Shown in pieces: positions 39,984 to 52,650 of a DNA stretch of 64,000 nucleotides. The stretch comes from Thermococcus sp. MV5. Lineage in GTDB: Archaea; Methanobacteriota_B; Thermococci; Thermococcales; Thermococcaceae. A program made the translations under genes and the position numbers. Each line of letters starts with the position of its first letter. Positions within the stretch are counted from its first letter, which is position 1. The notes below the pieces were generated by a model. It ran no database searches, was not told the origin of the DNA, and saw nothing but the letters and a program-made list of their open reading frames with translations. Location: assembly GCF_012027425.1 (NCBI RefSeq), contig NZ_SNUE01000003.1, positions 1 through 64,000 of the forward strand, given 5' to 3'.

Positions 39984-42242
39984 ATGAAAAGAATATTTTC
40001 GCTAATTTTAATCCTGCTAATAGTGATTCCTTATGCTGGAGCACTCCCCATTTTAGACGCTTCCACGAGGTTTTTAATCGAGGGCAAAGATTACATGGAT
40101 GGCACTCAAGAGATAAGCTTATCTTTAATGGCCTTGCTCTCAAGTTATTCTATTGCTGAAAATCTTACCAAAGAAAATATCGCGAGCTTTGTGGATGAAC
40201 TATTGAAGAGACAAAATGAGGATGGAGGATGGGGATATTACGAGGGAAGTGTGAGTAATGTTGTGGACACTTCTTATGCAGTTATAGCGTTAAAACGGGC
40301 AGCAGACTTTTATGCTTCTACTGGAGAGTCCTATTATGATATCTCAAGGGCTCTTAGGAAAGGGCTGAGTTTTCTAGTAAGATCCTACACCATGAATGGA
40401 TGGGGATACATACCAAACACACTGCCAGAGTTCTATCCAACCCTTATGGCAGTTTGGGCATTGGGTGAGAATGGATACACAGAAAAGAGCAGATATGTGG
40501 GGGGAGCAATAACATACTTGGAATCGGCCGAGAGAATGGAAATAAGTGAAGCAAAGGCTGTTGGACTAAAGATCCTTGCCTATAAGAGTGTTGGTTATCA
40601 AATACCCGAATCTCTCATTGAAAAAGCATGGGAACTCGTAAATTCTGACACTATTACCATAGATGAGAGGGCCCTGCTCACCTATGTGCTCACCACTCAT
40701 GAGGGATTGACTTTTGAAGTTGCCAAACTCCTCAGCAGGCTAGAAGACCTAGCAGAGAGCAATGAAACCTTGATTTACTGGGCCAACATTCCAGAAGAGT
40801 GGACAAACAGGGAGGTGTTCGTGGCTTCAGCATTCGCAGTCATGAGTTTTGCAACGGCCAATGCCCTTGGAGGAATAAGGGGCATCATTTCAATAGAAGA
40901 CTCTTGTTCTGCCCTTGAAGAAGTCCAGAATCCAGATGGAGGATGGGGATACAGATCGGGGTATAGCTCTGATGATAGAACCACTTATTACGTTTTAAAG
41001 GCATTGAAGAGGTGCTACTTTAAAGATGAAGTCATTGAGAAAGGCCTAGAATGGGTTGAAAGCAGACTCCCCGAGAATATGGAAAAAGTCTCTAAAGAAG
41101 GACGATTAAACTCTGCTTACATTTACAACCTCCTCACGCTTCTAGAGTTTAATATGCTTAATGAAACTGAAAAACAAACCCATATCTCCTTTATAAAGAG
41201 TTTGAGTGAGGATGGGAAGTGGAAGACGATACTTGGACCACAACCATACGATACGGCCCTTGCTATAAAGGCTCTCCTAGCATTGGGAGTTGACCCAAGT
41301 GATGAGGACATAGCAAAAGCAAAAGAGTGGCTCCTCTCACTACCAACAGATGGATGGGGCCTTCGCATACAGATTGCCGTTCCATTTAGGGTCCGTTATA
41401 TCATGCCCACAGTTCCCACAACTTTAGAGGTCCTTGAGGCTCTCACCCCACTGGTCACTAGAGAAGAGGTTGAAAGGTACTTGACGTGGCTCATGGAGCA
41501 GAAAATCGAAGATGATGGATGGCCCGTTGTTAAGGAGATTTATATTAGAGATATCCTCATGTACTTGGGTTCTCCATCAGTTGAACTCACAATACGAGCC
41601 ACTAGAGTCCTATACGACTTTGGCATAGACTACCGTGCTGAGACATTTAACTGGCTTTTGGACCACCGCAGTGATGGTTTATGGGGAACAACCCTAACAG
41701 AATCTGCCCTTGCAGTACTCTTCTTCTCTGAGATGGGGGATGTATTAATTAAGCCCCTCAGTCTCTATCAAGTTCTCAAGCAGATTCCCGAGAAGAACTT
41801 TACGATTCTTTACACTTCTGGTTATAATTCCACTGCAGTTTCACTTGGAGAAGCCCTTAGTGAAGTATTTGAAAAGAGCTTTGAGATTAAGCCCTTTGAA
41901 GGGTTTGGAGACTCCAACTACATCGTAGTCTCAGACTTCAGTACATTTAATATACTCCAGTACAACCCATACATCAAGGTAAAGAGCGATGATATGTATG
42001 TCTATCTTGATGATAAGAGTTATCCAATAAATGACACGGTAATTTTAATCCCAGGAAAAACCAGCGAGGGATACCTGTTGTTTGTACTCTCATCCAAAGG
42101 GGCAGAGGATATTGTGAGCACATTCTTCAGCTCCACGATAATCAAGTACCTCAATGGAGCCGCCTGTGTAATAACCCATGAGGACAAGAACTATAATGGA
42201 GTAGTGGAGTTTGATGAATTGAACATTGAGCTTGTGGGGTGA
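39984..42242 (+). CDS. Secreted alpha/alpha-toroid repeat protein
   Basis: A 752-residue protein with a signal peptide (KRIFSLILILLIVIPYAGA). The rest to about residue 590 consists of repeated helical pairs with QW-like motifs: QNEDGGWGYYEGSVSNVVDT, NGWGYIPNTLPEFYPTLMAV, QNPDGGWGYRSGYSSDDRTT, DGWGLRI, DDGWPVV and DGLWGTTLTESAL. This is the prenyltransferase/squalene-cyclase toroid, but the catalytic DxDD of cyclases is not visible, so it probably binds or scaffolds. The C-terminus ends in a calcium-loop-like HEDKNYNGVVEFDELN. It starts the pilin/CetZ gene cluster, and its stop lies 7 bp before the GTPase start. Confidence 0.8.
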   Translation: MKRIFSLILILLIVIPYAGALPILDASTRFLIEGKDYMDGTQEISLSLMALLSSYSIAENLTKENIASFVDELLKRQNEDGGWGYYEGSVSNVVDTSYAVIALKRAADFYASTGESYYDISRALRKGLSFLVRSYTMNGWGYIPNTLPEFYPTLMAVWALGENGYTEKSRYVGGAITYLESAERMEISEAKAVGLKILAYKSVGYQIPESLIEKAWELVNSDTITIDERALLTYVLTTHEGLTFEVAKLLSRLEDLAESNETLIYWANIPEEWTNREVFVASAFAVMSFATANALGGIRGIISIEDSCSALEEVQNPDGGWGYRSGYSSDDRTTYYVLKALKRCYFKDEVIEKGLEWVESRLPENMEKVSKEGRLNSAYIYNLLTLLEFNMLNETEKQTHISFIKSLSEDGKWKTILGPQPYDTALAIKALLALGVDPSDEDIAKAKEWLLSLPTDGWGLRIQIAVPFRVRYIMPTVPTTLEVLEALTPLVTREEVERYLTWLMEQKIEDDGWPVVKEIYIRDILMYLGSPSVELTIRATRVLYDFGIDYRAETFNWLLDHRSDGLWGTTLTESALAVLFFSEMGDVLIKPLSLYQVLKQIPEKNFTILYTSGYNSTAVSLGEALSEVFEKSFEIKPFEGFGDSNYIVVSDFSTFNILQYNPYIKVKSDDMYVYLDDKSYPINDTVILIPGKTSEGYLLFVLSSKGAEDIVSTFFSSTIIKYLNGAACVITHEDKNYNGVVEFDELNIELVG

Positions 42243-42249
42243 AATTACT

Positions 42250-43353
42250 TTGAGGGCTTTAATCATTGGAGTAGGTCAGTGTGGAACAAAGATAGCGGAC
42301 TTGTTCGCCTTAGTGGATTTTGAGGCATTAGCAATAAACACATCAAAGAGTGACCTTGACTACTTGAAGCATATTCCTAGGGAACGGCGTATACTCATAG
42401 GCGAGAGCCTAACTGGAGGAAAGGGAGTAAATGCGAACCCAGTACTCGGAAGAGAGGCAATGAAAAGAGATCTTTCAATGATAATGAAGAAAATAAACTC
42501 CATGGTGGGTTACAGCGACGTTGACATATTTTTCCTCACTTTCGGTTTTGGTGGTGGAACAGGGGCTGGAGGGGCTCCAGTTTTAGCTGAAGCCCTAAAA
42601 GAGGAATACCCTGATTCACTCGTTGTCGCAATTGGGGCACTTCCGTTAAAGGAAGAGGGAATAAGACCAACAATAAATGCTGCAATAACAATAGACAAGC
42701 TTTCCAAAGTAGCTGATTCAATAATAGCCATAGATAACAACAAACTTAAGGAAAGTGGCGAGGACATAACACGGGCCTATGAAAAAATAAATCATACGAT
42801 AGTTGAGCGGATAGCATCCCTTCTGGCATTAATAGACATTCCCGGAGAGCAAACACTAGATTCCAGTGATCTGAAGTTCGTGCTCAATGCTTTTGGAAGC
42901 TTCGCTACTGTAGGTTATGCAAAAGCTGAAGCAAATAAAGTTAGGAATCTCTCCCGGCTTATCTTAAAGTCATTTGAGAATGAGGGGCTTTATCTCGAAG
43001 CAAATATAGAGTCTGCCCTCTATGGGTTAGTAGCAATCCACGGGCCGCCTGAGCTTTTAAAAGCCAGGGATATATTTGAGGCTCTTAGTTACCTAACCAA
43101 AAAGATTAAAGGAAAGCAGATTTTCCGCGGCTTTTATCCAGATCCAAGGGAAAAGGAGATAGAAGTTGTTACCCTCCTAACAGGGATTTATGAGAGTAAA
43201 AGCATTGAAGATATAGTGATAATCGCTAAGCAATATGCTCAGTCATTCGTAAAAGCGAAAGAAGAGGCTGAAACAAAGAAAAAAGAACTTTTAACCGGTC
43301 TGCCGGATTTTGATGACATTTATCCGGGTGGGGTTAATGAAAGATTCGATTGA
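42250..43353 (+). CDS. CetZ/FtsZ-superfamily tubulin-like GTPase
   Basis: A 367-residue tubulin-superfamily GTPase. The nucleotide loops are IIGVGQCGTKIADLF (T1) and FGFGGGTGAGGAPVLAEALK (G-box, T4); GALPLKEEG follows. The T7 loop reads TLDSSDLKFVL against N-x-D-x-x-D in FtsZ: both Asp are kept, Asn is replaced. The closest group by pattern is CetZ. TTG 42250 is chosen because GGGGTGA sits 7 bp before it; the ATG at 42226 would read through that site. It overlaps the next gene by 17 bp. Its place beside pilin-like genes suggests positioning of surface structures, by inference. Confidence 0.85.
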   Translation: MRALIIGVGQCGTKIADLFALVDFEALAINTSKSDLDYLKHIPRERRILIGESLTGGKGVNANPVLGREAMKRDLSMIMKKINSMVGYSDVDIFFLTFGFGGGTGAGGAPVLAEALKEEYPDSLVVAIGALPLKEEGIRPTINAAITIDKLSKVADSIIAIDNNKLKESGEDITRAYEKINHTIVERIASLLALIDIPGEQTLDSSDLKFVLNAFGSFATVGYAKAEANKVRNLSRLILKSFENEGLYLEANIESALYGLVAIHGPPELLKARDIFEALSYLTKKIKGKQIFRGFYPDPREKEIEVVTLLTGIYESKSIEDIVIIAKQYAQSFVKAKEEAETKKKELLTGLPDFDDIYPGGVNERFD

Positions 43354-43954
43354 TGTTGCGTTGGAGCTGAAGGAAAAGGAAGTCTACTCCCACATAGCTC
43401 ACGAAAGCGCGGAGGACATGATTAGAATAATCTCTTCTATAGATGCTGAAAGAGCAAAAAACAGGGGAGAGATAATTCATTATGAAGATGACTGGGATGA
43501 TTTGATTAGACGGAGAGTGGCCAAAGGAAAAAGACACACTGCCTTTGATTTTTACAATCCTGCTCTCCTCACGATATGGGAAAACAAAGTAAAAGGTATG
43601 AAAAAGGTTAAAACTGTATTTAAACTTGGGTTGGCGATTTTGAGCATCTTTTTGGTAGCAGGAATAGCGGCCACAATTATCTATGGTGAGTTATGGGTTT
43701 TAATTCCTTTGAGCCTCCTCCCAATAGTGATACTTCTGATGGACTATAAAAAGAACGCCCTTGATCTTGGTTATTACCAGCTTACCCAGCTTTTTATTGA
43801 AGAACTTAAAGAACTCCTAAAGAAATATGAACTTGAGCCTGAACGGTACAAATTCAAAATATTCAATCATGATTATTTCGGAGTTTTAACGAAAAAAATT
43901 GGCACCAATGTTTTTGCAATGGTAAAGAAAGATGAAACGGATGGAAAGCGTTAA
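43337..43954 (+). CDS. Two-helix membrane protein next to the CetZ-like gene
   Basis: A 205-residue protein: an acidic, helical N-terminal cytoplasmic region (MKDSIDVALELKEKEVYSHI to YNPALLTIWENK), two close transmembrane helices (about 98-118 and 122-142; LAILSIFLVAGIAATIIYG, LWVLIPLSLLPIVILLM) and a C-terminal cytoplasmic domain. No named family. It overlaps the GTPase gene, with GGGTGGGG before its ATG, so the two are probably co-translated. It could be the membrane anchor of the GTPase filament. Confidence 0.75.
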   Translation: MKDSIDVALELKEKEVYSHIAHESAEDMIRIISSIDAERAKNRGEIIHYEDDWDDLIRRRVAKGKRHTAFDFYNPALLTIWENKVKGMKKVKTVFKLGLAILSIFLVAGIAATIIYGELWVLIPLSLLPIVILLMDYKKNALDLGYYQLTQLFIEELKELLKKYELEPERYKFKIFNHDYFGVLTKKIGTNVFAMVKKDETDGKR

Positions 43955-43994
43955 ATAATTTGTTGACGTGTTATTTATTGGTATGGTGAGAAAA

Positions 43995-44600
43995 ATGAAA
44001 AAAGGACAGATATCGCTGGAGTTCCTATTCATATTTATATTGTTCCTCGTACTCCTGACTTTCTCGATTAGGAATATCACATTCTCCAGCGAGCATTCTG
44101 CAGATATGTTGAGAATTCAGGTTAGTGAAGAGGCGAAGCTGTTTGCAAACACGGTTTCTAATGCGATATCTCAGGTTTATGCTCAAGGCCCGGGTGCAAA
44201 AACCACTGAATACTTCACTTTTAGGTATCTAAATGATGAATATTTTCTTACAAGGGCGTTTGGTATGGATGGAACACCTCAGATCTTAGTAGGGTATAAA
44301 AATGGCACTTATGTTGCTATTTTGGATAATGCCAATCAGACCATAAATGTAAACGAGACAGAGACAACGAAGAAGAATTATTTCTGGAGTAGGTCTCTCT
44401 ATGCAAAAGATCTGTCAAACAACACCTCAATTTACTATCCGAATAATACCATAGGCAATCATACAGGGATATTTGTGAATGCAACAGATTTACCCTCGAC
44501 ATTAAGGATAGTTGTTGAATGGAATCCGGATAGAAATGAAAGCTGGATTTTCAACTCTACCTCTGGAGAACTTAGGATAAACCTTAATGTCGGTGGTTAG
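43995..44600 (+). CDS. Type IV pilin-like protein, 201 residues
   Basis: It starts MKKGQISLEFLFIFILFLVL, a class III signal peptide of archaeal pilins: short basic leader, G-Q cleavage junction, Glu six residues into the mature helix, then the hydrophobic stalk. The rest is a beta-rich head with many N-x-S/T sequons (NGTYVA, NQTINV, NETETT, NNTSIYY). ATG 43995 is chosen because GGTGAG lies just before; the upstream starts lengthen the leader without reason. It is the first pilin-like gene in a run of six. Confidence 0.85.
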   Translation: MKKGQISLEFLFIFILFLVLLTFSIRNITFSSEHSADMLRIQVSEEAKLFANTVSNAISQVYAQGPGAKTTEYFTFRYLNDEYFLTRAFGMDGTPQILVGYKNGTYVAILDNANQTINVNETETTKKNYFWSRSLYAKDLSNNTSIYYPNNTIGNHTGIFVNATDLPSTLRIVVEWNPDRNESWIFNSTSGELRINLNVGG

Positions 44601-44601
44601 T

Positions 44602-45024
44602 ATGAGAGGACAGTTAAACTTGGATCTGCTTTTCGCTTTTGTGCTTGTTACTCTTACGATGTTAAACTTGATCTACCTAGCCAACAATGAGATGGCCCAT
44701 GCAGAGAGCTTTGATGTAATGGCAAAGGTGAGAGTTTTTTCGGCTGAAATAGTCGACCATACGGCCAAAGTTTATGCTGTGGGGGAAGGATACAGACTGA
44801 AGGAAGAAACTCCTCAAATAAGTGGGGCCACTTTTCGCATTACTTTTAATGGAGCCACGAACAAAATAATAGTCAACGTGACAGTGGATGGAAAGAGTTA
44901 CTGGATAGTTAAGAACTCCACGGTTCCTATGACTAATGCTTCAATAGTTGTTGACAGTGGAGATAGTTTTTGGATAACTACTGTAAGGATAGGTGAGATG
45001 CTTTATGCGAATATCACGGAGTAA
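44602..45024 (+). CDS. Type IV pilin-like protein, 140 residues
   Basis: Starts MRGQLNLDLLFAFVLVTLTM: a very short leader with R-G-Q junction and the hydrophobic N-terminal stalk, with Asp where pilins usually have Glu. The head has sequons (VNVTVDG, KNSTVPM, TNASIVV, NITE). It begins 1 bp after the stop of the previous pilin gene, with GGTGG before the ATG, and overlaps the next pilin gene by 20 bp. Confidence 0.82.
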   Translation: MRGQLNLDLLFAFVLVTLTMLNLIYLANNEMAHAESFDVMAKVRVFSAEIVDHTAKVYAVGEGYRLKEETPQISGATFRITFNGATNKIIVNVTVDGKSYWIVKNSTVPMTNASIVVDSGDSFWITTVRIGEMLYANITE

Positions 45025-45475
45025 GGGACAAACGGCCATTGAGATGATATTTATACTAAGCATACTTTTCATCGGGTTAATTATGATTGTCCCCTCTTAT
45101 ACGGATAATAATACAAATATGATGATAGTGAGCTATGTGAGAAGTTCCCTTTCAAAGGCAATTGATTACTTGAACACGGGAGTTATGACTGATGACGAAC
45201 CTTACAGTGAGTTAAATCCAATAATGAGAAATATCACAGAAAATCCCCATCTCTCGCTTAAAAGCCTGACATCGGAGGAAAGCAGGAATGAGGTTAATAT
45301 AACAGTTACATTATCGACCCCATTCCGTTCAATTGCAAACCTCACCAATTTAAATGAGAGTATAAAGGCCTTTGTAGAGAAAGACCTTGTCCAAAACTTT
45401 AGGTTCACCAATAATTCTGACACTTTATATTATGGTGGAAAGGAAGTAAATATAGAGATTGTGGTGGGAGAATGA
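45005..45475 (+). CDS. Type IV pilin-like protein, 156 residues
   Basis: Starts MRISRSKGQTAIEMIFILSI: K-G-Q junction and Glu in the stalk, as in archaeal class III signal peptides. AGGTGAG lies 7 bp before ATG 45005. The head is small with sequons (RNITENP, VNITVTL, LNESIK, TNNSDT). Its end overlaps the following 488-residue gene by ATGA. Confidence 0.82.
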   Translation: MRISRSKGQTAIEMIFILSILFIGLIMIVPSYTDNNTNMMIVSYVRSSLSKAIDYLNTGVMTDDEPYSELNPIMRNITENPHLSLKSLTSEESRNEVNITVTLSTPFRSIANLTNLNESIKAFVEKDLVQNFRFTNNSDTLYYGGKEVNIEIVVGE

Positions 45476-46938
45476 GGAGAAAGGGCCAATTGCTTACAAT
45501 AGATGCTTTACTTTCACTGGTTATCGTTGTGATGGTCGTGGGGGTAGTTTTAAATACGAATGACATGATAAAGGCCGAGATAACTAATCTTCTGGACTGG
45601 TATGACAGGGCGAACATTGCAAACAACATGCTCGATGTCTTGACTAAAAACCCCGGTTATCCCGAAAACTGGGAGGAGAATGCGAGCGGTGTTAAGGTTG
45701 TGGGATTGAGAGATAAAGATTACTCCTTTGCTCTTGATTATGATAAAATTATCACCTTCAATAAGTCTAAGGATGACATGAAGGATATCCTAAATCAGCT
45801 GGCGAGGGGGAAAGATTTTCTGTTTGAAATTTATGTGTCGAGATTTAATGTAAGCATTGAGGGAAGGTTTCCAAGGGTTTACTTGGATAAGGTGACTTTT
45901 AAAAATCCAAACCCTCCTCCGGAAGGAGTTGTGTTTTTTATAGCAACTGAGGCAGATGCTAACAATCCAAGCTCGTTTGAAGTTAGCTTTGTAGAAGTAA
46001 TTCAAGATGGTGTGGATTATGTGAACGAAAATGTTTGTAACACGCCTCCTAAAAATGGGAATGTAATATTTTTAGATAAGGGAGATTATGTTAAGTTTGT
46101 GGTACTCCAGGATGTTTATATAAAAGCAGAGAGGGGCAAATATCAGGAAAGTATATTGATACCCAACAACTCTGTAATAGAGTTTTTTATGACAGATCCT
46201 CAAAGTGCGTTCCATATAGATTATGGTGGAGGGGAATGTCCTTATAAATTCAAGTTTTCTGGAATTGGAGACGTTGTGGTGACAGTTTCGGCTTATGACA
46301 ATATATTTCCTATTTTGAACTCCACATATACTTCATCCAGAACATTTTGGGAGTGTGGCGAACCATTCTATAGGCTCTCTTTAATAAATGGAAGTTATTA
46401 CAGTGATTTGAACCTAATAACTCCCTCCATGTCTCGTTCTCCTTGGGTAGAGCTTGCTGAGAGACAGAGCGTAATCTCTAGACGTGCATACAATCTCTCT
46501 GCAGGCCCCTCTGCTGAAGATCCTCTCATATACGGGTTTATGGCCCATAGGGTTTTGGATGGTACCTCTTTACTTGTTAAAGTTCCCCTTGAGCCCGGAA
46601 ATCTCAGTCTTTTGAGTATGTTAGGTACGGAGGTGAGGGGGGTATTTGTTTACAAAAACTCCTCAGGATTAAACGTGAATGGAACACTTGTGTGGTATGA
46701 AAATGGAGAACCAAAAGTTAAAGGCTATTATGGGGAGAACAACACAATAGTAATTCCATTTGAAGAGCTATTTGGTTCTGAAGATACAGAAGGAAAAATT
46801 ATTGGCTTATGGCTTTATTCCCTTAATGGATGGAGCAGAGAGAACGTTACAATTGAGGTAATACCAACTATAGAGTATATGCTCGAGCCCAAATTTGAGC
46901 CAGTTCTTATAAGATTGTTAGTGTGGGATGACAGATGA
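45472..46938 (+). CDS. Large pilin-anchored surface protein, 488 residues
   Basis: Starts MRRKGQLLTIDALLSLVIVV: basic leader, K-G-Q junction and a hydrophobic stalk with Asp instead of Glu. Behind it is a head of about 450 residues with many sequons, an amount of sequence unusual for a pilin. Four cysteines are visible (NVCNTPP, GECPYKF, WECGEPF). It is coupled by ATGA to both neighbours. It may be a minor pilin or adhesin at the tip or base of the fibre. Confidence 0.8.
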   Translation: MRRKGQLLTIDALLSLVIVVMVVGVVLNTNDMIKAEITNLLDWYDRANIANNMLDVLTKNPGYPENWEENASGVKVVGLRDKDYSFALDYDKIITFNKSKDDMKDILNQLARGKDFLFEIYVSRFNVSIEGRFPRVYLDKVTFKNPNPPPEGVVFFIATEADANNPSSFEVSFVEVIQDGVDYVNENVCNTPPKNGNVIFLDKGDYVKFVVLQDVYIKAERGKYQESILIPNNSVIEFFMTDPQSAFHIDYGGGECPYKFKFSGIGDVVVTVSAYDNIFPILNSTYTSSRTFWECGEPFYRLSLINGSYYSDLNLITPSMSRSPWVELAERQSVISRRAYNLSAGPSAEDPLIYGFMAHRVLDGTSLLVKVPLEPGNLSLLSMLGTEVRGVFVYKNSSGLNVNGTLVWYENGEPKVKGYYGENNTIVIPFEELFGSEDTEGKIIGLWLYSLNGWSRENVTIEVIPTIEYMLEPKFEPVLIRLLVWDDR

Positions 46939-49046
46939 GGAGGAGGGGATTTATATTCACACTTGATGCTTTGATTTCATTGCTTTTGGTTATGGTGTTC
47001 ATTAGCAGTGTGGTCATTGTAGTGGACAATGTTAATATCTATCCAAGCTCGCTCAGAGAACAAGAGAAGTACATTACTCAGGATGCATTGACTATGTTAA
47101 GGAGCTCGCCCCTGAAGGATATAGTCCCACCTTCCATACTTGAGAACTGGAGCAGTGGGAGTGATCCCATAATAATGCCTGAGCTTGTTGACATCTACAT
47201 GAGCCCCCTTGATATAGTAGCAACCTACTGGGCGGTTGATCCTCTTTATCCAGCGATTGATTTAAAGCATAAGGCAGAAATTATCTTAGGTTATATCCTT
47301 AATGTGACTCTCAAAGATTACAACTACGAACTCCTTGTAAACAACTATACAAGTCCGTATTTGAGGAGAGTTACTGCCAATTACTCTAAAGCTTTTGACG
47401 TCTCTCCTGCCACTCTTGAGCTAAGCGGATACCAATACAACCAAACTCCAAGGGGATACGTGGCTAGGGCTTATATAACAGATATTGGAAGTAAAGAGAA
47501 CACTTATACTGCAAGGGGAGGGTATATATACGCGAGAACTGATAATTCAAATGATAAGGTTATTATTCAGTATATAATTCCAGCAGACGCAATTCCAGCA
47601 GACGCAGTAATAGATGAGATAGAATGGTTTTTTGAACCAGCATGGGTTGGTTCTCAATATGAGGCCTATTTAAACGGTCAGCAGATTTTGAATAGATATA
47701 TCACTTATAACTATAGAATCTTAGATACTGCAGGAGATTCTTCCGTACGCCTAATTGAAAACTTCCGGCCAGGAGAAAATAATGTCTTTGAAGTAAGAGT
47801 TTACAAAAGCGGATATGATGGTGGGGAAGATGGAGCACAGTATATAAGAATAAGATACCATACTTCAGCTCCATTAACTCTAGAGTATCCGAAGAGATTT
47901 TACTTTGAAGATGTCTCGGCCTGCTATGGGATTACTGCCTGGAAGTATCTATTTGTTCCAGGGGTTTTAACTTCTTTAAATGTCCAGGTGTCAGTTGGTA
48001 ACGTAACTCAAAATGACCCAATTTCTCTTTCTTTCCTTTTTGATACTGAAATTTCAGTGCCCCCAACAATGTGTACGTATAACTCAACAACAATGATAAA
48101 GACTTGTTATTGGGATAACAGTGATATATACAACACTCTTACTTCCCAAGGATACAGTTACATCCAAATTTCGAGCAGATATACAACAATAATTGTAAGA
48201 GCCGGGAACGGGAACACTCGGTATAATAGGATTCATCTAATTGGTGAGGACTCTTTTGTTGCGGCAGAATATACAATACCTCTATTACTAACCCCATATA
48301 GCGTAGATGTTACTGAGCCAATAACTAGTTATTCTGCTTCTGTTTGTAGTGACTCTTGGTGCAGAGAGGTGACTTGGAGCTTCAATGTTCCTCAGGGTGT
48401 CGTTCCGTTATGGGTGAGATTTCAATTTCCGTGGTTATATTACGCTGGGACTGATCCCAGTCAGGAAATAGTGGTCGATAATGAATTCATTAATGCAACA
48501 TATTTCTATAAACACCCTCCAAACCCGTTTATATCTGCCTTGGCAAGATTGGGGTACACGAAAGATACCTTCGATTATCAGTATAATCCTCTACCAAATG
48601 CAATTGTGAATGGAAAAAACAATGTCACTGTTAATTTGGGATATGGATATTGGTTACAGCCCTCGAATGGAAATGGAGAACTTACTTATATTATAAGAGG
48701 ATATGTAGGGTATGGACATGTTTTTCCTGCCCTTCTAAAAAGTGGGTGTGGTGGGTATAATATCACATACTACTGGAGCGGCGATTCATCTCCTCATCAC
48801 GTAACAGCAGGAGATCCTCCATATTGCAATGTTACAATGGATGAGTTAATAAACAGTAGCAAGAATTATGCCGTTGATGATGCTATAGTGCGTCTCTTTA
48901 GGAATCTAGGAGGCAATGGAACCCAAGAAGGTCCCATTATCATCAAGTTGCCCGATACCGTAAATATTGCATTTGCTTCAATGGGTAATATTCCGACTCT
49001 GTTTGAGCCCATAACAGTAACTTTGAGAGTATGGAGGGAGGAATAA
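46935..49046 (+). CDS. Very large pilin-anchored surface protein, 703 residues
   Basis: Starts MRRRGFIFTLDALISLLLVM: the same leader type but with G-F instead of G-Q at the junction, and the shared DAL-S-L stalk motif with the 488-residue neighbour. The head of about 660 residues is Tyr/Asn/Ser-rich and beta-like, with a repeated VIPADAIPADAVID-type segment (tandem IPADA). Several Cys pairs are visible (DVSACYG, VCSDSWCRE). The largest protein of the cluster; an adhesin is a reasonable inference. Ends overlapping the next gene by one base. Confidence 0.8.
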   Translation: MRRRGFIFTLDALISLLLVMVFISSVVIVVDNVNIYPSSLREQEKYITQDALTMLRSSPLKDIVPPSILENWSSGSDPIIMPELVDIYMSPLDIVATYWAVDPLYPAIDLKHKAEIILGYILNVTLKDYNYELLVNNYTSPYLRRVTANYSKAFDVSPATLELSGYQYNQTPRGYVARAYITDIGSKENTYTARGGYIYARTDNSNDKVIIQYIIPADAIPADAVIDEIEWFFEPAWVGSQYEAYLNGQQILNRYITYNYRILDTAGDSSVRLIENFRPGENNVFEVRVYKSGYDGGEDGAQYIRIRYHTSAPLTLEYPKRFYFEDVSACYGITAWKYLFVPGVLTSLNVQVSVGNVTQNDPISLSFLFDTEISVPPTMCTYNSTTMIKTCYWDNSDIYNTLTSQGYSYIQISSRYTTIIVRAGNGNTRYNRIHLIGEDSFVAAEYTIPLLLTPYSVDVTEPITSYSASVCSDSWCREVTWSFNVPQGVVPLWVRFQFPWLYYAGTDPSQEIVVDNEFINATYFYKHPPNPFISALARLGYTKDTFDYQYNPLPNAIVNGKNNVTVNLGYGYWLQPSNGNGELTYIIRGYVGYGHVFPALLKSGCGGYNITYYWSGDSSPHHVTAGDPPYCNVTMDELINSSKNYAVDDAIVRLFRNLGGNGTQEGPIIIKLPDTVNIAFASMGNIPTLFEPITVTLRVWREE

Positions 49047-50422
49047 TGAGAAGGAGAGGGTTTGTATTAAATTCTGCTGTTCTAATTCTCCTCATTCCGA
49101 TATTGCTCTTAGTAGCTACTTATGAAGATGTCTCTTCTCAAATTATTCAAGCTCAGAGCGAAAGAGTTCAAATAGAGAGGAGTTTTTCTAGTACTGCTTA
49201 TTTTGATATAGATTTTCAGAGGGCATTGGAGATAGCTGGAAAGAGGGCTGTTGTAGCTGCAGTTGATTATGTTTCTGTTACTGGTAGGTTTTTAAATTCC
49301 ACAATGGTCAACGAAACTATACGGGAGTTAATTCTTTTCGGAAATTCCACAGTATTCTCCGATTCTGGTTATAATCAAGACATTATGGGTAATCAAAGTC
49401 TTGAAAAATGGCTAAAGCTTGTGAGAGAAAAGTTAATGGAACAGGGGTTTTATCTACTGCCTGAAAATGATACTTTAATAATAAACAGAACGGAGATAGT
49501 AGTTGCACCTCTGGATTCATTTAGGGTTGTTGTAAAAGCAAAAATTCACAACATCACCATTGTGGATACCTCTGGGAAAGTGGTTTATACAGGTTCAATC
49601 CCAAAAACTACCAACTATACTTACGCAATAGTCGATATCAGAGAGCTTGAAGACCCTCTATTCCCTCCCATGACGGGTGGAAAATATCACCGCTCAATAA
49701 GAGCCTGCTTGTATCCGTTCCCAGAACTTATTGAAAAACCCATAATTGCTCTGGATGGTGTGGGAGAGAGTACCGAGAAGTATATCGTAGGATTTTATGG
49801 TCAGGATATTCTGTACAACTCAACACATATATGGAAGGACTCTTCATATATAACGAACATAACTCTGAATGGGATCCCAGTTTCCCCAATACACTCTCTT
49901 AATGATTGGGATAGAGGAGTTTTGGTATTTAAAGACCCTCAGACACAGCCCAAGCTTTCTAATGCAACAGCCTATGATATCCAGCCATTTATAGATTGTA
50001 TTATTGACCAGAGATACTTTGGAGTATATAATGGCTGGTCTCTTTTTGAAAGACTGGAAGGAAGTTCTGCTAATCATGAAGCCTACTTTAATCTATCAAA
50101 ACAGCTACAAGAGGAACTCGGCTTATTAAAAAATGGAAAATATTATCCTATCGGCCTCCTAAGCTTTCTTCTTCCAGACTCTGATTGGGATGCAAAGCTC
50201 GTTAACACTTTAAATCAATTAGGGGTGCTCCTCGATAACCAGACTGTCGTTGATTACTACTTCCTCCAATATCATTTTGCAAGTGGGAGTAAAATTGAAG
50301 GATACAAGATGAGAGGAATTGAAGGTTATATAGACAATTTTTACATTGATAACGAAACTGCAATAGCAATCTTCGGAGAACAAGGAGCGTGCGATCTGCT
50401 TGAGGGTTACACATGTAGTTGA
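49046..50422 (+). CDS. Pilin-anchored surface protein, 458 residues
   Basis: Starts MRRRGFVLNSAVLILLIPIL: basic leader with R-G-F and a hydrophobic helix, but with no acidic residue in the stalk, so processing may differ. The head has numerous sequons and ends with CDLLEGYTCS. GGAGGGAGG lies before ATG 49046, inside the end of the previous gene. It is the sixth and last of the pilin-like run and is followed after 10 bp by a membrane protein. Confidence 0.78.
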   Translation: MRRRGFVLNSAVLILLIPILLLVATYEDVSSQIIQAQSERVQIERSFSSTAYFDIDFQRALEIAGKRAVVAAVDYVSVTGRFLNSTMVNETIRELILFGNSTVFSDSGYNQDIMGNQSLEKWLKLVREKLMEQGFYLLPENDTLIINRTEIVVAPLDSFRVVVKAKIHNITIVDTSGKVVYTGSIPKTTNYTYAIVDIRELEDPLFPPMTGGKYHRSIRACLYPFPELIEKPIIALDGVGESTEKYIVGFYGQDILYNSTHIWKDSSYITNITLNGIPVSPIHSLNDWDRGVLVFKDPQTQPKLSNATAYDIQPFIDCIIDQRYFGVYNGWSLFERLEGSSANHEAYFNLSKQLQEELGLLKNGKYYPIGLLSFLLPDSDWDAKLVNTLNQLGVLLDNQTVVDYYFLQYHFASGSKIEGYKMRGIEGYIDNFYIDNETAIAIFGEQGACDLLEGYTCS

Positions 50423-50432
50423 GGTGATAATC

Positions 50433-51206
50433 ATGAGCTTTGGTGAAATCCTATATAAAGTAGGGGAAATAGGCGAATCCTTTGCAAAGAAATCTGTAAA
50501 ATGGTTTAGTGAAATAGCAAAACCGACCCCTTCTAAAACCCCTCCAAAGTTCAAAATTCTCAGAAAGCTAATAAAAAGAGAACTCACAGTTCATGAACTT
50601 TTAAGTTTAAGCATCCAGCTTTCATTCATAATCTACCTCATATTATCTCTCTTACTTGTCCTCTTTGCGAACGAGCTTTACCTGACTTTGCTTTTTGTCT
50701 TCTACTTCATCTATCTGAGGTACACCATTTTAAAAAATCGGGAATTCTTCATTGAAGTTGAACCATACAGGTTCTTTTATTACGGGCTAACGATAATCGG
50801 CTTCCTGTCCTTTCTTGGATATCTCTTAGTAAGGAGAGTCGCAAAGAACGTCTATTATTTTTACGCTTATTTGATAGCTATTTTTGCGGTTGTATTATTG
50901 TTCAGGCATCTCTATAAGTCAAAGTTCACCAGGGACTGGACTTATGGGGTAGTTGAGGAAATAAAGGGGGAGCTTGTAAAGGTAAGTGTTCATGATGACA
51001 TACGGGCCAATGTCAAACCGGGCAAGTACTGGGTGGATAACACTGAGGACGTTGAGGTGGGAGACGTTGTAAAAATTCTCGTAGAAGAAAGAATCTTCAG
51101 GAGTTCTCTCCCAAAGAGAGTGCTAGAAGTTCATAAAGCGAAACCCTCATCATCAGAAACCTCAACAGAACCAAAAGCTGAAAGTGAAAAAAGCAATAGC
51201 AGGTAA
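50433..51206 (+). CDS. Multi-pass membrane protein closing the pilin cluster
   Basis: A 257-residue protein. After a charged N-terminal 60 residues, four helices follow (about 62-82, 86-100, 115-135, 140-158), and then a soluble C-terminal domain with YGVVEEIKGELVKVSVHDDI and VEVGDVVKILVEE, resembling a small beta-barrel. It might be an assembly or anchoring factor for the surface structure; it does not look like the PilC/FlaJ platform protein. GAGGTGAT lies before ATG 50433. Its last 76 bp overlap a convergent gene. Confidence 0.75.
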   Translation: MSFGEILYKVGEIGESFAKKSVKWFSEIAKPTPSKTPPKFKILRKLIKRELTVHELLSLSIQLSFIIYLILSLLLVLFANELYLTLLFVFYFIYLRYTILKNREFFIEVEPYRFFYYGLTIIGFLSFLGYLLVRRVAKNVYYFYAYLIAIFAVVLLFRHLYKSKFTRDWTYGVVEEIKGELVKVSVHDDIRANVKPGKYWVDNTEDVEVGDVVKILVEERIFRSSLPKRVLEVHKAKPSSSETSTEPKAESEKSNSR

Positions 51207-51762: not shown

Positions 51763-52650
51763 GTGGTTAATCAAGTTCAAGTGAAGTCCATTCTGAATAA
51801 ACACAAAAATAGAGACGCCTGGTTTTTGGATGATTATTCAATAAATCCCTATTATGGGTGCTCATTTAACTGCATTTACTGTTATACAAAAGGAAGCAAA
51901 TATGGAGAACACATTATGAAAGGCCTCTCTGCCAAGATAAATGCTCCAATGATTTTAGAAAAACAATTGAAACGAAGAGCAAAAAAAGGAGAATATGGAA
52001 TAATTGCTTTATCGACCTCTACAGAGCCATATATGCAAATTGAAGAGAAATTAAACCTCACTAGGAACATCCTAAAAATTATTTTACGATATAGATTTCC
52101 GATTCATATTTTGACAAAATCAAAGCTTGTATTGAGAGATATAGACATATTAAAGAAAATCGATGAAAATGCAAGACTGCCCACCGATTTAGAGCAAAAA
52201 TTGAGTCGTGGAGTACTTATCTCGTTTTCCATTTCTACTTTGGATGAAAAATTAGCAAAAATTCTTGAACCTGGAGCTCCAAAACCTACAGAACGCTTGG
52301 AAACTATGAAGAAGTTCAAAGAGGTGGGATTTCTCACAGGAGTTTGTTTTATTCCGGTTCTTCCATTTTTATCGGATTCAGAGGAACAACTTGATGAGAT
52401 GATAAAAACTGCAGCAGAGTATGGGGCAGATTTTTGCTTAATTGGGGCCTTAACATTATTTGGTAGCGGCCCAAGAGACTGTAAAACCCTTTATTATCAG
52501 TTTTTGGAGGAATATTATCCTGAACTTGTTCCCAGATATAAGAAGCTTTATGGAAATTTTTGGGCACCTTCTAACCAATATCAAAAGAGACTTGAGGAAA
52601 TATCAAGAAGACTATGTGAAAAATATGGCGTTAAAAACAGGATTATATAA
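51763..52650 (+). CDS. Radical SAM protein, spore-photolyase-like group
   Basis: A 295-residue radical SAM protein of the COG1533 type. The cluster motif is INPYYGCSFNCIYCYTKGSK, CxxxCxxC preceded by the NPYxGC of this group, and YGIIALSTSTEPYMQIEEKL follows. The name spore photolyase refers to bacterial relatives; archaeal members have no proven substrate. GTG 51763 starts it after GGGGGT. It ends 10 bp before the convergent guaAA gene. A monocistronic gene with its own TATA box. Confidence 0.85.
   Translation: MVNQVQVKSILNKHKNRDAWFLDDYSINPYYGCSFNCIYCYTKGSKYGEHIMKGLSAKINAPMILEKQLKRRAKKGEYGIIALSTSTEPYMQIEEKLNLTRNILKIILRYRFPIHILTKSKLVLRDIDILKKIDENARLPTDLEQKLSRGVLISFSISTLDEKLAKILEPGAPKPTERLETMKKFKEVGFLTGVCFIPVLPFLSDSEEQLDEMIKTAAEYGADFCLIGALTLFGSGPRDCKTLYYQFLEEYYPELVPRYKKLYGNFWAPSNQYQKRLEEISRRLCEKYGVKNRII

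What the first reader, a model, noticed from the sequence alone, without database searches (positions are those of the whole stretch)
39984..51206. CetZ-like GTPase inside a six-member pilin-like gene array: candidate new surface-structure system
Nine genes are packed with overlaps, most gaps being below 15 bp and the largest 40 bp: secreted alpha/alpha-toroid protein, tubulin-superfamily GTPase, two-helix membrane protein, six proteins with class III (pilin) leaders, and a four-helix membrane protein. The pilin-like proteins grow from 140-201 to 458-703 residues, far beyond normal pilins, and carry many N-glycosylation sequons. There is no PilB/PilT ATPase and no PilC/FlaJ platform in the block. 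Known archaeal CetZ proteins act in cell shape and motility; a CetZ-like gene co-transcribed with pilins is not something I know described. One inference: the GTPase filament places or assembles a surface fibre at the membrane.
Basis: partly seen in the sequence, partly recalled or inferred. Interest (0 to 1): 0.82.

Follow-up and report, generated by a model that had tools for sequence, protein, structure and literature searches.

The report
Known CetZ–pilin operon, swapped tip pilins
This is the already described Thermococcales gene block that joins a tubulin-like cytoskeletal protein (CetZ) to a set of pilus proteins; what looks new is that the outermost pilus proteins are swapped wholesale between species while the rest of the block hardly changes.

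Summary
The novelty claim does not hold: the CetZ/FtsZ + squalene-cyclase-like + pilin cluster of Thermococci was described in 2016 (citing Szabo 2007) and again in 2023. In 60 of 63 Thermococcaceae loci all ten genes lie in this order; the three others each lack one gene at the locus. The block has no motor of its own. ATPase, two TadC platforms, small major pilins and the leader peptidase lie elsewhere, 60-970 kb away in 23 genomes. The best reading is therefore the minor-pilin/tip module of the archaeal clade-1 type IV pilus, with CetZ as a membrane-tethered cytosolic scaffold (inferred). A further result I did not find described: the three large pilins (G, H, I) change independently of species relatedness (rank correlation with CetZ identity about 0). 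In the closest relatives, CetZ, toroid and motor are 97-99% identical but G/H/I only about 41-44%. Several other close pairs show conserved ends around swapped middle domains, and no donor copies were found in the genus.

The parts
39984..42242 (+). A: secreted alpha/alpha-toroid protein (squalene-cyclase-like fold), 752 aa, N-terminal signal sequence
   Evidence: Pfam SQHop_cyclase_C 3e-13; hydrophobic N-terminus; two allele classes about 47% alike within the genus
42250..43353 (+). B: CetZ, tubulin-superfamily GTPase, TTG start, 367 aa, invariant C-terminal tail LLxGLPDFDDxY
   Evidence: Pfam Tubulin + CetZ_C; phmmer best to 4b46, 4b45, 3zid; tail nearly invariant in 63 loci
43337..43954 (+). 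C: membrane protein, about 90-residue conserved cytosolic N-terminal domain and one long hydrophobic stretch (two helices); candidate CetZ anchor
   Evidence: hydrophobic stretch residues 90-139; N-terminal domain highly conserved; gene overlaps cetZ by 17 bp
43986..44600 (+). D: pilin-like, class III leader KKG^QISLEF
   Evidence: PF04021 2.8e-7
44602..45024 (+). E: pilin-like, RG^QLNLDLL
   Evidence: leader pattern plus hydrophobic helix
45005..45475 (+). F: pilin-like, SKG^QTAIEM
   Evidence: leader pattern; PF04021 weak 0.47
45472..46938 (+). G: large pilin-like protein, 488 aa, conserved ends and variable middle
46935..49046 (+). H: large pilin-like protein, 703 aa, helical N-terminus then beta-sandwich modules; hypervariable
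   Evidence: AlphaFold pLDDT 79; weak PDB hits include sugar-binding beta sandwiches
49046..50422 (+). I: large pilin-like protein without the acidic residue near +5, 77-residue first helix; site of optional DUF2341 inserts in relatives; hypervariable
   Evidence: AlphaFold pLDDT 87.5; alignment with intact ends; Pfam on relatives
50433..51206 (+). J: DUF2101 membrane protein (about four helices)
   Evidence: PF09874 1.5e-76; one copy in nearly every Thermococcaceae genome, none found outside the family in the phylum

Best explanation
The block encodes the minor-pilin and tip module of the archaeal clade-1 type IV pilus of Thermococcaceae. The pilus is built in trans by a separate motor locus (one secretion ATPase and two TadC platform proteins), with small stand-alone major pilins and a leader peptidase elsewhere. 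CetZ is a cytosolic scaffold; I infer that its invariant C-terminal tail binds the conserved cytosolic domain of the two-helix protein C, which would tether CetZ filaments to the membrane where the pilus base sits. The toroid protein A and DUF2101 protein J would be accessory parts outside and in the membrane. D-F prime assembly; G, H and I are exposed tip or adhesin subunits. The exposed parts of the pilins, above all G-I, are replaced by homologous recombination with DNA from other cells, so each lineage shows a different tip on the same machine, probably to change what it sticks to or to avoid viruses. Shown: gene order, no local motor, motor in the same genome, variability and mosaic pattern, single copies of H and I within the genus. 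Inferred: use of this motor, CetZ-C contact, tip position, recombination as the cause, reason for the variation.
For: Ten-gene order kept in 60 of 63 loci of six genera. CetZ in 89/94 and DUF2101 in nearly all Thermococcaceae genomes, mostly one copy each. Pilus-type ATPase in the same genomes, 60-970 kb from cetZ in 23 genomes. In this genome the motor locus (two TadC + ATPase) has no minor pilins beside it, so the two loci complement each other. A leader peptidase lies next to a 64-residue class III pilin. In about 11 nearly complete genomes only the pilus-type ATPase is found and no archaellum-type one, yet the CetZ block is present. Clade-1 T4P: DUF2341 proteins proposed as tip adhesins (PMC4858521); [quoted passage not shown] DUF2341 in I of relatives. 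Variability: Spearman of pairwise identity with CetZ identity 0.03 (G), 0.06 (H), 0.04 (I) against 0.73 (C) and 0.60 (J); H with I 0.66; 31-33 of 38-43 strong splits of G/H/I trees conflict with the core tree, against 4/35 for CetZ+C and 8/20 for the upstream gene. Motor genes 97-99% identical in the same close pair.
Against: No expression, imaging or protein data. All good genomes have the motor and nearly all the CetZ block, so co-occurrence cannot prove dependence. The ATPase was not placed on a tree, so 'clade 1' rests on the 2016 paper and the two-TadC layout. CetZ-C binding is only inferred from gene overlap and conservation. The H fold gives only weak, partial PDB matches and I gives none. 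Homology of D-I to Methanococcus Epd proteins was not tested. The upstream gene alone also conflicts with the core tree in 8 of 20 strong splits, so some conflict is noise or recombination of the flanks.
Confidence: 0.62

Rival explanations
1. A separate surface structure or secretion device, not the clade-1 pilus, in which CetZ itself assembles or positions the fibre without a PilB-type motor.
For: No motor gene in the block; motor always 60 kb or more away; CetZ co-conserved with all other genes.
Against: A motor locus without minor pilins exists in the same genome; published clade-1 models join them (PMC4858521); no known tubulin-like protein drives pilin assembly (my knowledge).
Confidence: 0.12
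2. CetZ serves cell shape or division and is in the block only for co-regulation; the pilins do not need it.
For: CetZ of haloarchaea acts in shape and motility (PMC9856176); CetZ is far more conserved than the pilins.
Against: cetZ stays directly before the C gene in all 63 loci; haloarchaeal cetZ2 also lies beside pilus genes (PMC9856176); the adjoining gene encodes a conserved cytosolic membrane-bound domain.
Confidence: 0.18
3. The pilins are assembled by the archaellum motor.
For: A second, archaellum-type ATPase with a 572-aa FlaJ-like protein exists in this genome; motors can serve different pilin sets (PMC4858521).
Against: About 11 nearly complete genomes with only the pilus-type ATPase detected still carry the CetZ block.
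Confidence: 0.05
4. G/H/I are merely fast-evolving, weakly constrained surface proteins; no cassette exchange.
For: Exposed pilin regions evolve fast in general; many pairs show low identity throughout.
Against: Abrupt switches from 88-100% to 8-60% identity and back inside D, G, H and I in pairs with CetZ 96-99%; some pairs keep H at 91-99% while I or G is swapped; the window's H is 66-67% identical to copies from two other genera but 41% to its closest relative.
Confidence: 0.1

Closest known systems
Thermococci clade-1 type IV pilus locus with FtsZ-family GTPase and squalene cyclase (Makarova et al. 2016, PMC4858521; Szabo 2007 as cited there)
   Same: Same gene association and lineage; DUF2341 tip-adhesin candidates; motor with two TadC
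   Different: That text gives no quantitative account of tip-pilin replacement; the window's I lacks DUF2341
Thermococcales cetZ regions (Brown & Duggin 2023, PMC9856176)
   Same: CetZ beside seven pilin-family arCOGs in conserved order; scaffold hypothesis already stated
   Different: In the parts read, no analysis of pilin allele exchange, of motor distance or of the CetZ tail and its neighbour C
Methanococcus maripaludis epd pilus (PMC10133366)
   Same: Minor-pilin locus with a DUF2341 gene; epdL/epdK at a distant locus tag
   Different: No CetZ in the gene list seen; EppA within the minor-pilin locus there
VARTIG module of Thermococcales (PMC8416519)
   Same: Hypervariable surface protein made by recombination between Thermococcales
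   Different: Built on Ig-domain proteins with shuffled gene order; here no Ig family match and fixed gene order
Sulfolobales Ups pili (PMC7064770)
   Same: Variable pilin region decides species recognition (as described in PMC8416519); a functional analogue
   Different: Variation in the major pilin UpsA, other T4P clade

Membership tests
CetZ (tubulin superfamily) | Tubulin GTPase domain with glycine-rich T4 loop | tested here: met
   PF00091 6e-33; GGGTGAGG motif
CetZ (tubulin superfamily) | CetZ-type C-terminal domain, closer to CetZ than to FtsZ | tested here: met
   PF21011 2.9e-17, cut-off passed; below the NCBIfam FtsZ cut-off (134 against 295 bits); best PDB chains 4b46/4b45/3zid
CetZ (tubulin superfamily) | GTP-dependent polymerisation | not testable with these tools
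   needs biochemistry
Archaeal clade-1 type IV pilus | Secretion ATPase with two TadC-like proteins | tested here: met
   Own genome C4:180.9-185.3 kb, in trans
Archaeal clade-1 type IV pilus | ATPase branches in clade 1 of the ATPase tree | not tested
   No tree built; rests on PMC4858521
Archaeal clade-1 type IV pilus | Class III leaders on minor pilins | tested here: inconclusive
   D over Pfam cut-off; others by pattern only
Archaeal clade-1 type IV pilus | Small stand-alone major pilins and leader peptidase | tested here: met
   64-aa class III pilin at C6:161.1 kb beside PF01478 peptidase at C6:161.3 kb
Archaeal clade-1 type IV pilus | DUF2341 protein in the locus (common, not universal: 46 of 63 loci) | tested here: not met
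   Absent in the window's I; present in I of 46 of 63 loci by a home-made HMM built on one sequence, with Pfam support in six relatives
VARTIG | Ig-domain hypervariable protein in a shuffled locus | tested here: not met
   No Ig family match in Pfam; gene order fixed
Squalene/prenyl cyclase enzyme (protein A) | Full-length cyclase match | tested here: not met
   Only repeat-level matches, far below NCBIfam cut-offs (47 against 323 bits, 34.5 against 431)

The most novel reading that the evidence does not exclude
A cytoskeleton-scaffolded pilus whose tip is a family-wide exchange system: lineages share one conserved machine (CetZ, C, motor) and swap tip modules by recombination between cells. 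If this pilus is the DNA-uptake pilus, as its relative is in Methanococcus, it would take up the DNA that rebuilds its own tip.
Probability: 0.2. Interest if true: 0.75.

Novelty: already known. Interest (0 to 1): 0.42.

Why it matters
The CetZ-pilin link is a published but untested lead for how an archaeal tubulin relative might help build a surface fibre. The contrast found here, a near-invariant CetZ/C/motor core against tip proteins that move between species, separates the machine from its target-facing part. It names concrete parts to test in tractable Thermococcales: the CetZ tail, the C domain, and H/I allele pairs.

Tried and rejected
CetZ-toroid fusion in L017/L019 (open frames of 1093 and 1068 aa): rejected, a stop codon separates them. 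I as a broken, truncated gene in the window: rejected, both ends are intact and only the middle insert is missing. Local silent donor copies of H or I: none in 12 genomes of the genus in which the block was found. Archaellum association: see rivals. Foldseek with the I model: no match below E 0.001. Non-Thermococcaceae members of the phylum have no DUF2101; their best CetZ-query hits, at about 30% identity, look like FtsZ.

Full report
Observation. The block at 39984-51206 is real and holds ten genes: A secreted toroid, B CetZ (TTG start at 42250), C two-helix membrane protein, D-I six pilin-like proteins, J DUF2101 membrane protein. Gaps lie between -20 and +31 bp. B matches Pfam Tubulin and CetZ_C over cut-off, and its nearest solved chains are 4b46, 4b45 and 3zid, ahead of FtsZ. 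Leaders: only D passes the class III model; E, F, G, H and I show the pattern. G and H carry the acidic residue one place later than usual and I lacks it.

Prior description. The association is published. Makarova et al. 2016 (PMC4858521) name an FtsZ-family GTPase and a squalene cyclase in clade-1 pilus loci of most Thermococci, citing Szabo 2007. Brown & Duggin 2023 (PMC9856176) show all analysed Thermococcales cetZ genes beside this pilin cluster in conserved order and suggest CetZ as an assembly scaffold.

Conservation. CetZ lies in 89 of 94 Thermococcaceae genomes. I read 63 loci from six genera: all ten genes in order in 60; A is missing in L092 and L096, and J of the L091 genome lies about 35 kb away. 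DUF2101 was not found outside the family in the phylum.

Motor in trans. The window's contig has no secretion ATPase or TadC. In this genome two TadC genes and an intein-bearing ATPase lie at C4:180.9-185.3 kb with no minor pilins next to them. A leader peptidase stands beside a 64-residue class III pilin at C6:161 kb. In 23 genomes the pilus-type ATPase lies 60-970 kb from cetZ (positions read). About 11 nearly complete genomes with only the pilus-type ATPase detected keep the block, so it does not follow the archaellum.

Hypervariable pilins. Against the close relative G009, genes around the block are 80-99% identical, but the pilins in order D-I are 65, 95, 76, 43, 40 and 42%; the motor genes are 97-99% outside the intein. 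Over 1540 pairs, identity of G, H and I does not follow CetZ identity (Spearman 0.03, 0.06, 0.04), while C does (0.73) and J does (0.60). H and I follow each other (0.66). The window's H is 67% and 66% identical to copies of two other genera but 41% to its nearest relative. Windowed comparison shows conserved ends and swapped middles; for example L024 and L025 (CetZ 99%) have H at 88-100% for the first 160 residues, 35-68% for about 400, then 88-92%. In the window's own close pair (WIN and L102) the drop covers nearly the whole of G after residue 80, H and I. Trees agree: most strong splits of G, H and I conflict with the core tree. Controls are imperfect, since the upstream gene conflicts in 8 of 20 strong splits. 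H and I occur once per genome in the 12 genomes of the genus where they were found, so I infer donors from other cells. G was not searched in this way. Many compared genomes are single contigs, so binning artefacts do not explain the pattern.

Domain content. In relatives I carries 0-3 DUF2341 domains inserted between conserved ends; one relative also has a CBM-like match below cut-off. The window's copy has none. Short I (352-369 aa) goes with long H (840-866 aa) in 9 of 9 loci. AlphaFold gives H a helical start and beta sandwiches (pLDDT 79) with weak, partial PDB matches, several to sugar-binding sandwiches. I has a 77-residue first helix (pLDDT 87.5) and no PDB match.

Mechanism. Shown: order, separate motor, variability. 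Inferred: the block is the minor-pilin/tip module of the clade-1 pilus; CetZ is tied to the membrane by C, because the CetZ tail LLxGLPDFDDxY is nearly invariant behind a more variable linker and the cytosolic domain of C is highly conserved. A DUF2341 gene in the Methanococcus maripaludis pilus locus was hit in a screen for transformation defects (PMC10133366), so DNA uptake is a possible role here, untested.

Limits. 'Not described' for the tip exchange means not found in the papers searched. One 2022 table lists a Thermococcales class III pilin family (arCOG04026) with a variable region (PMC9425974), which may or may not be one of these. The DUF2341 HMM was built from a single seed sequence, so 46 of 63 is a lower bound.

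Noticed in passing
window 1-31700: Many genes of this stretch have no or only weak matches in the syntenic region of G009, which points to one or more variable islands upstream of the conserved part.
   Followed up: no
L035 17634-19883 (own genome C4, about 183-185 kb): The pilus ATPase carries an intein-like insertion (LAGVLLGDGYIASNG motif); open frames of about 600 or about 1100 aa in other genomes suggest that the insertion is present or absent between them.
   Followed up: partly
L035 2874-3323: A second class III pilin gene near the motor is only 63-65% identical between relatives whose motor genes are 97-99% identical.
   Followed up: no
L092, L096 (G046, G099): The toroid gene A is missing from the block in two genomes.
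   Followed up: no
G035 C1:1756298: J (DUF2101) lies about 35 kb from cetZ on the other strand, a rearranged block.
   Followed up: no
window 39984-42242: Toroid A also falls into two allele classes (about 47% alike) among genomes with CetZ 98-99% identical.
   Followed up: partly
window 51763-52650: A radical-SAM-like gene directly after the block is found there only in this genome, G008 and G009 among the loci read.
   Followed up: no
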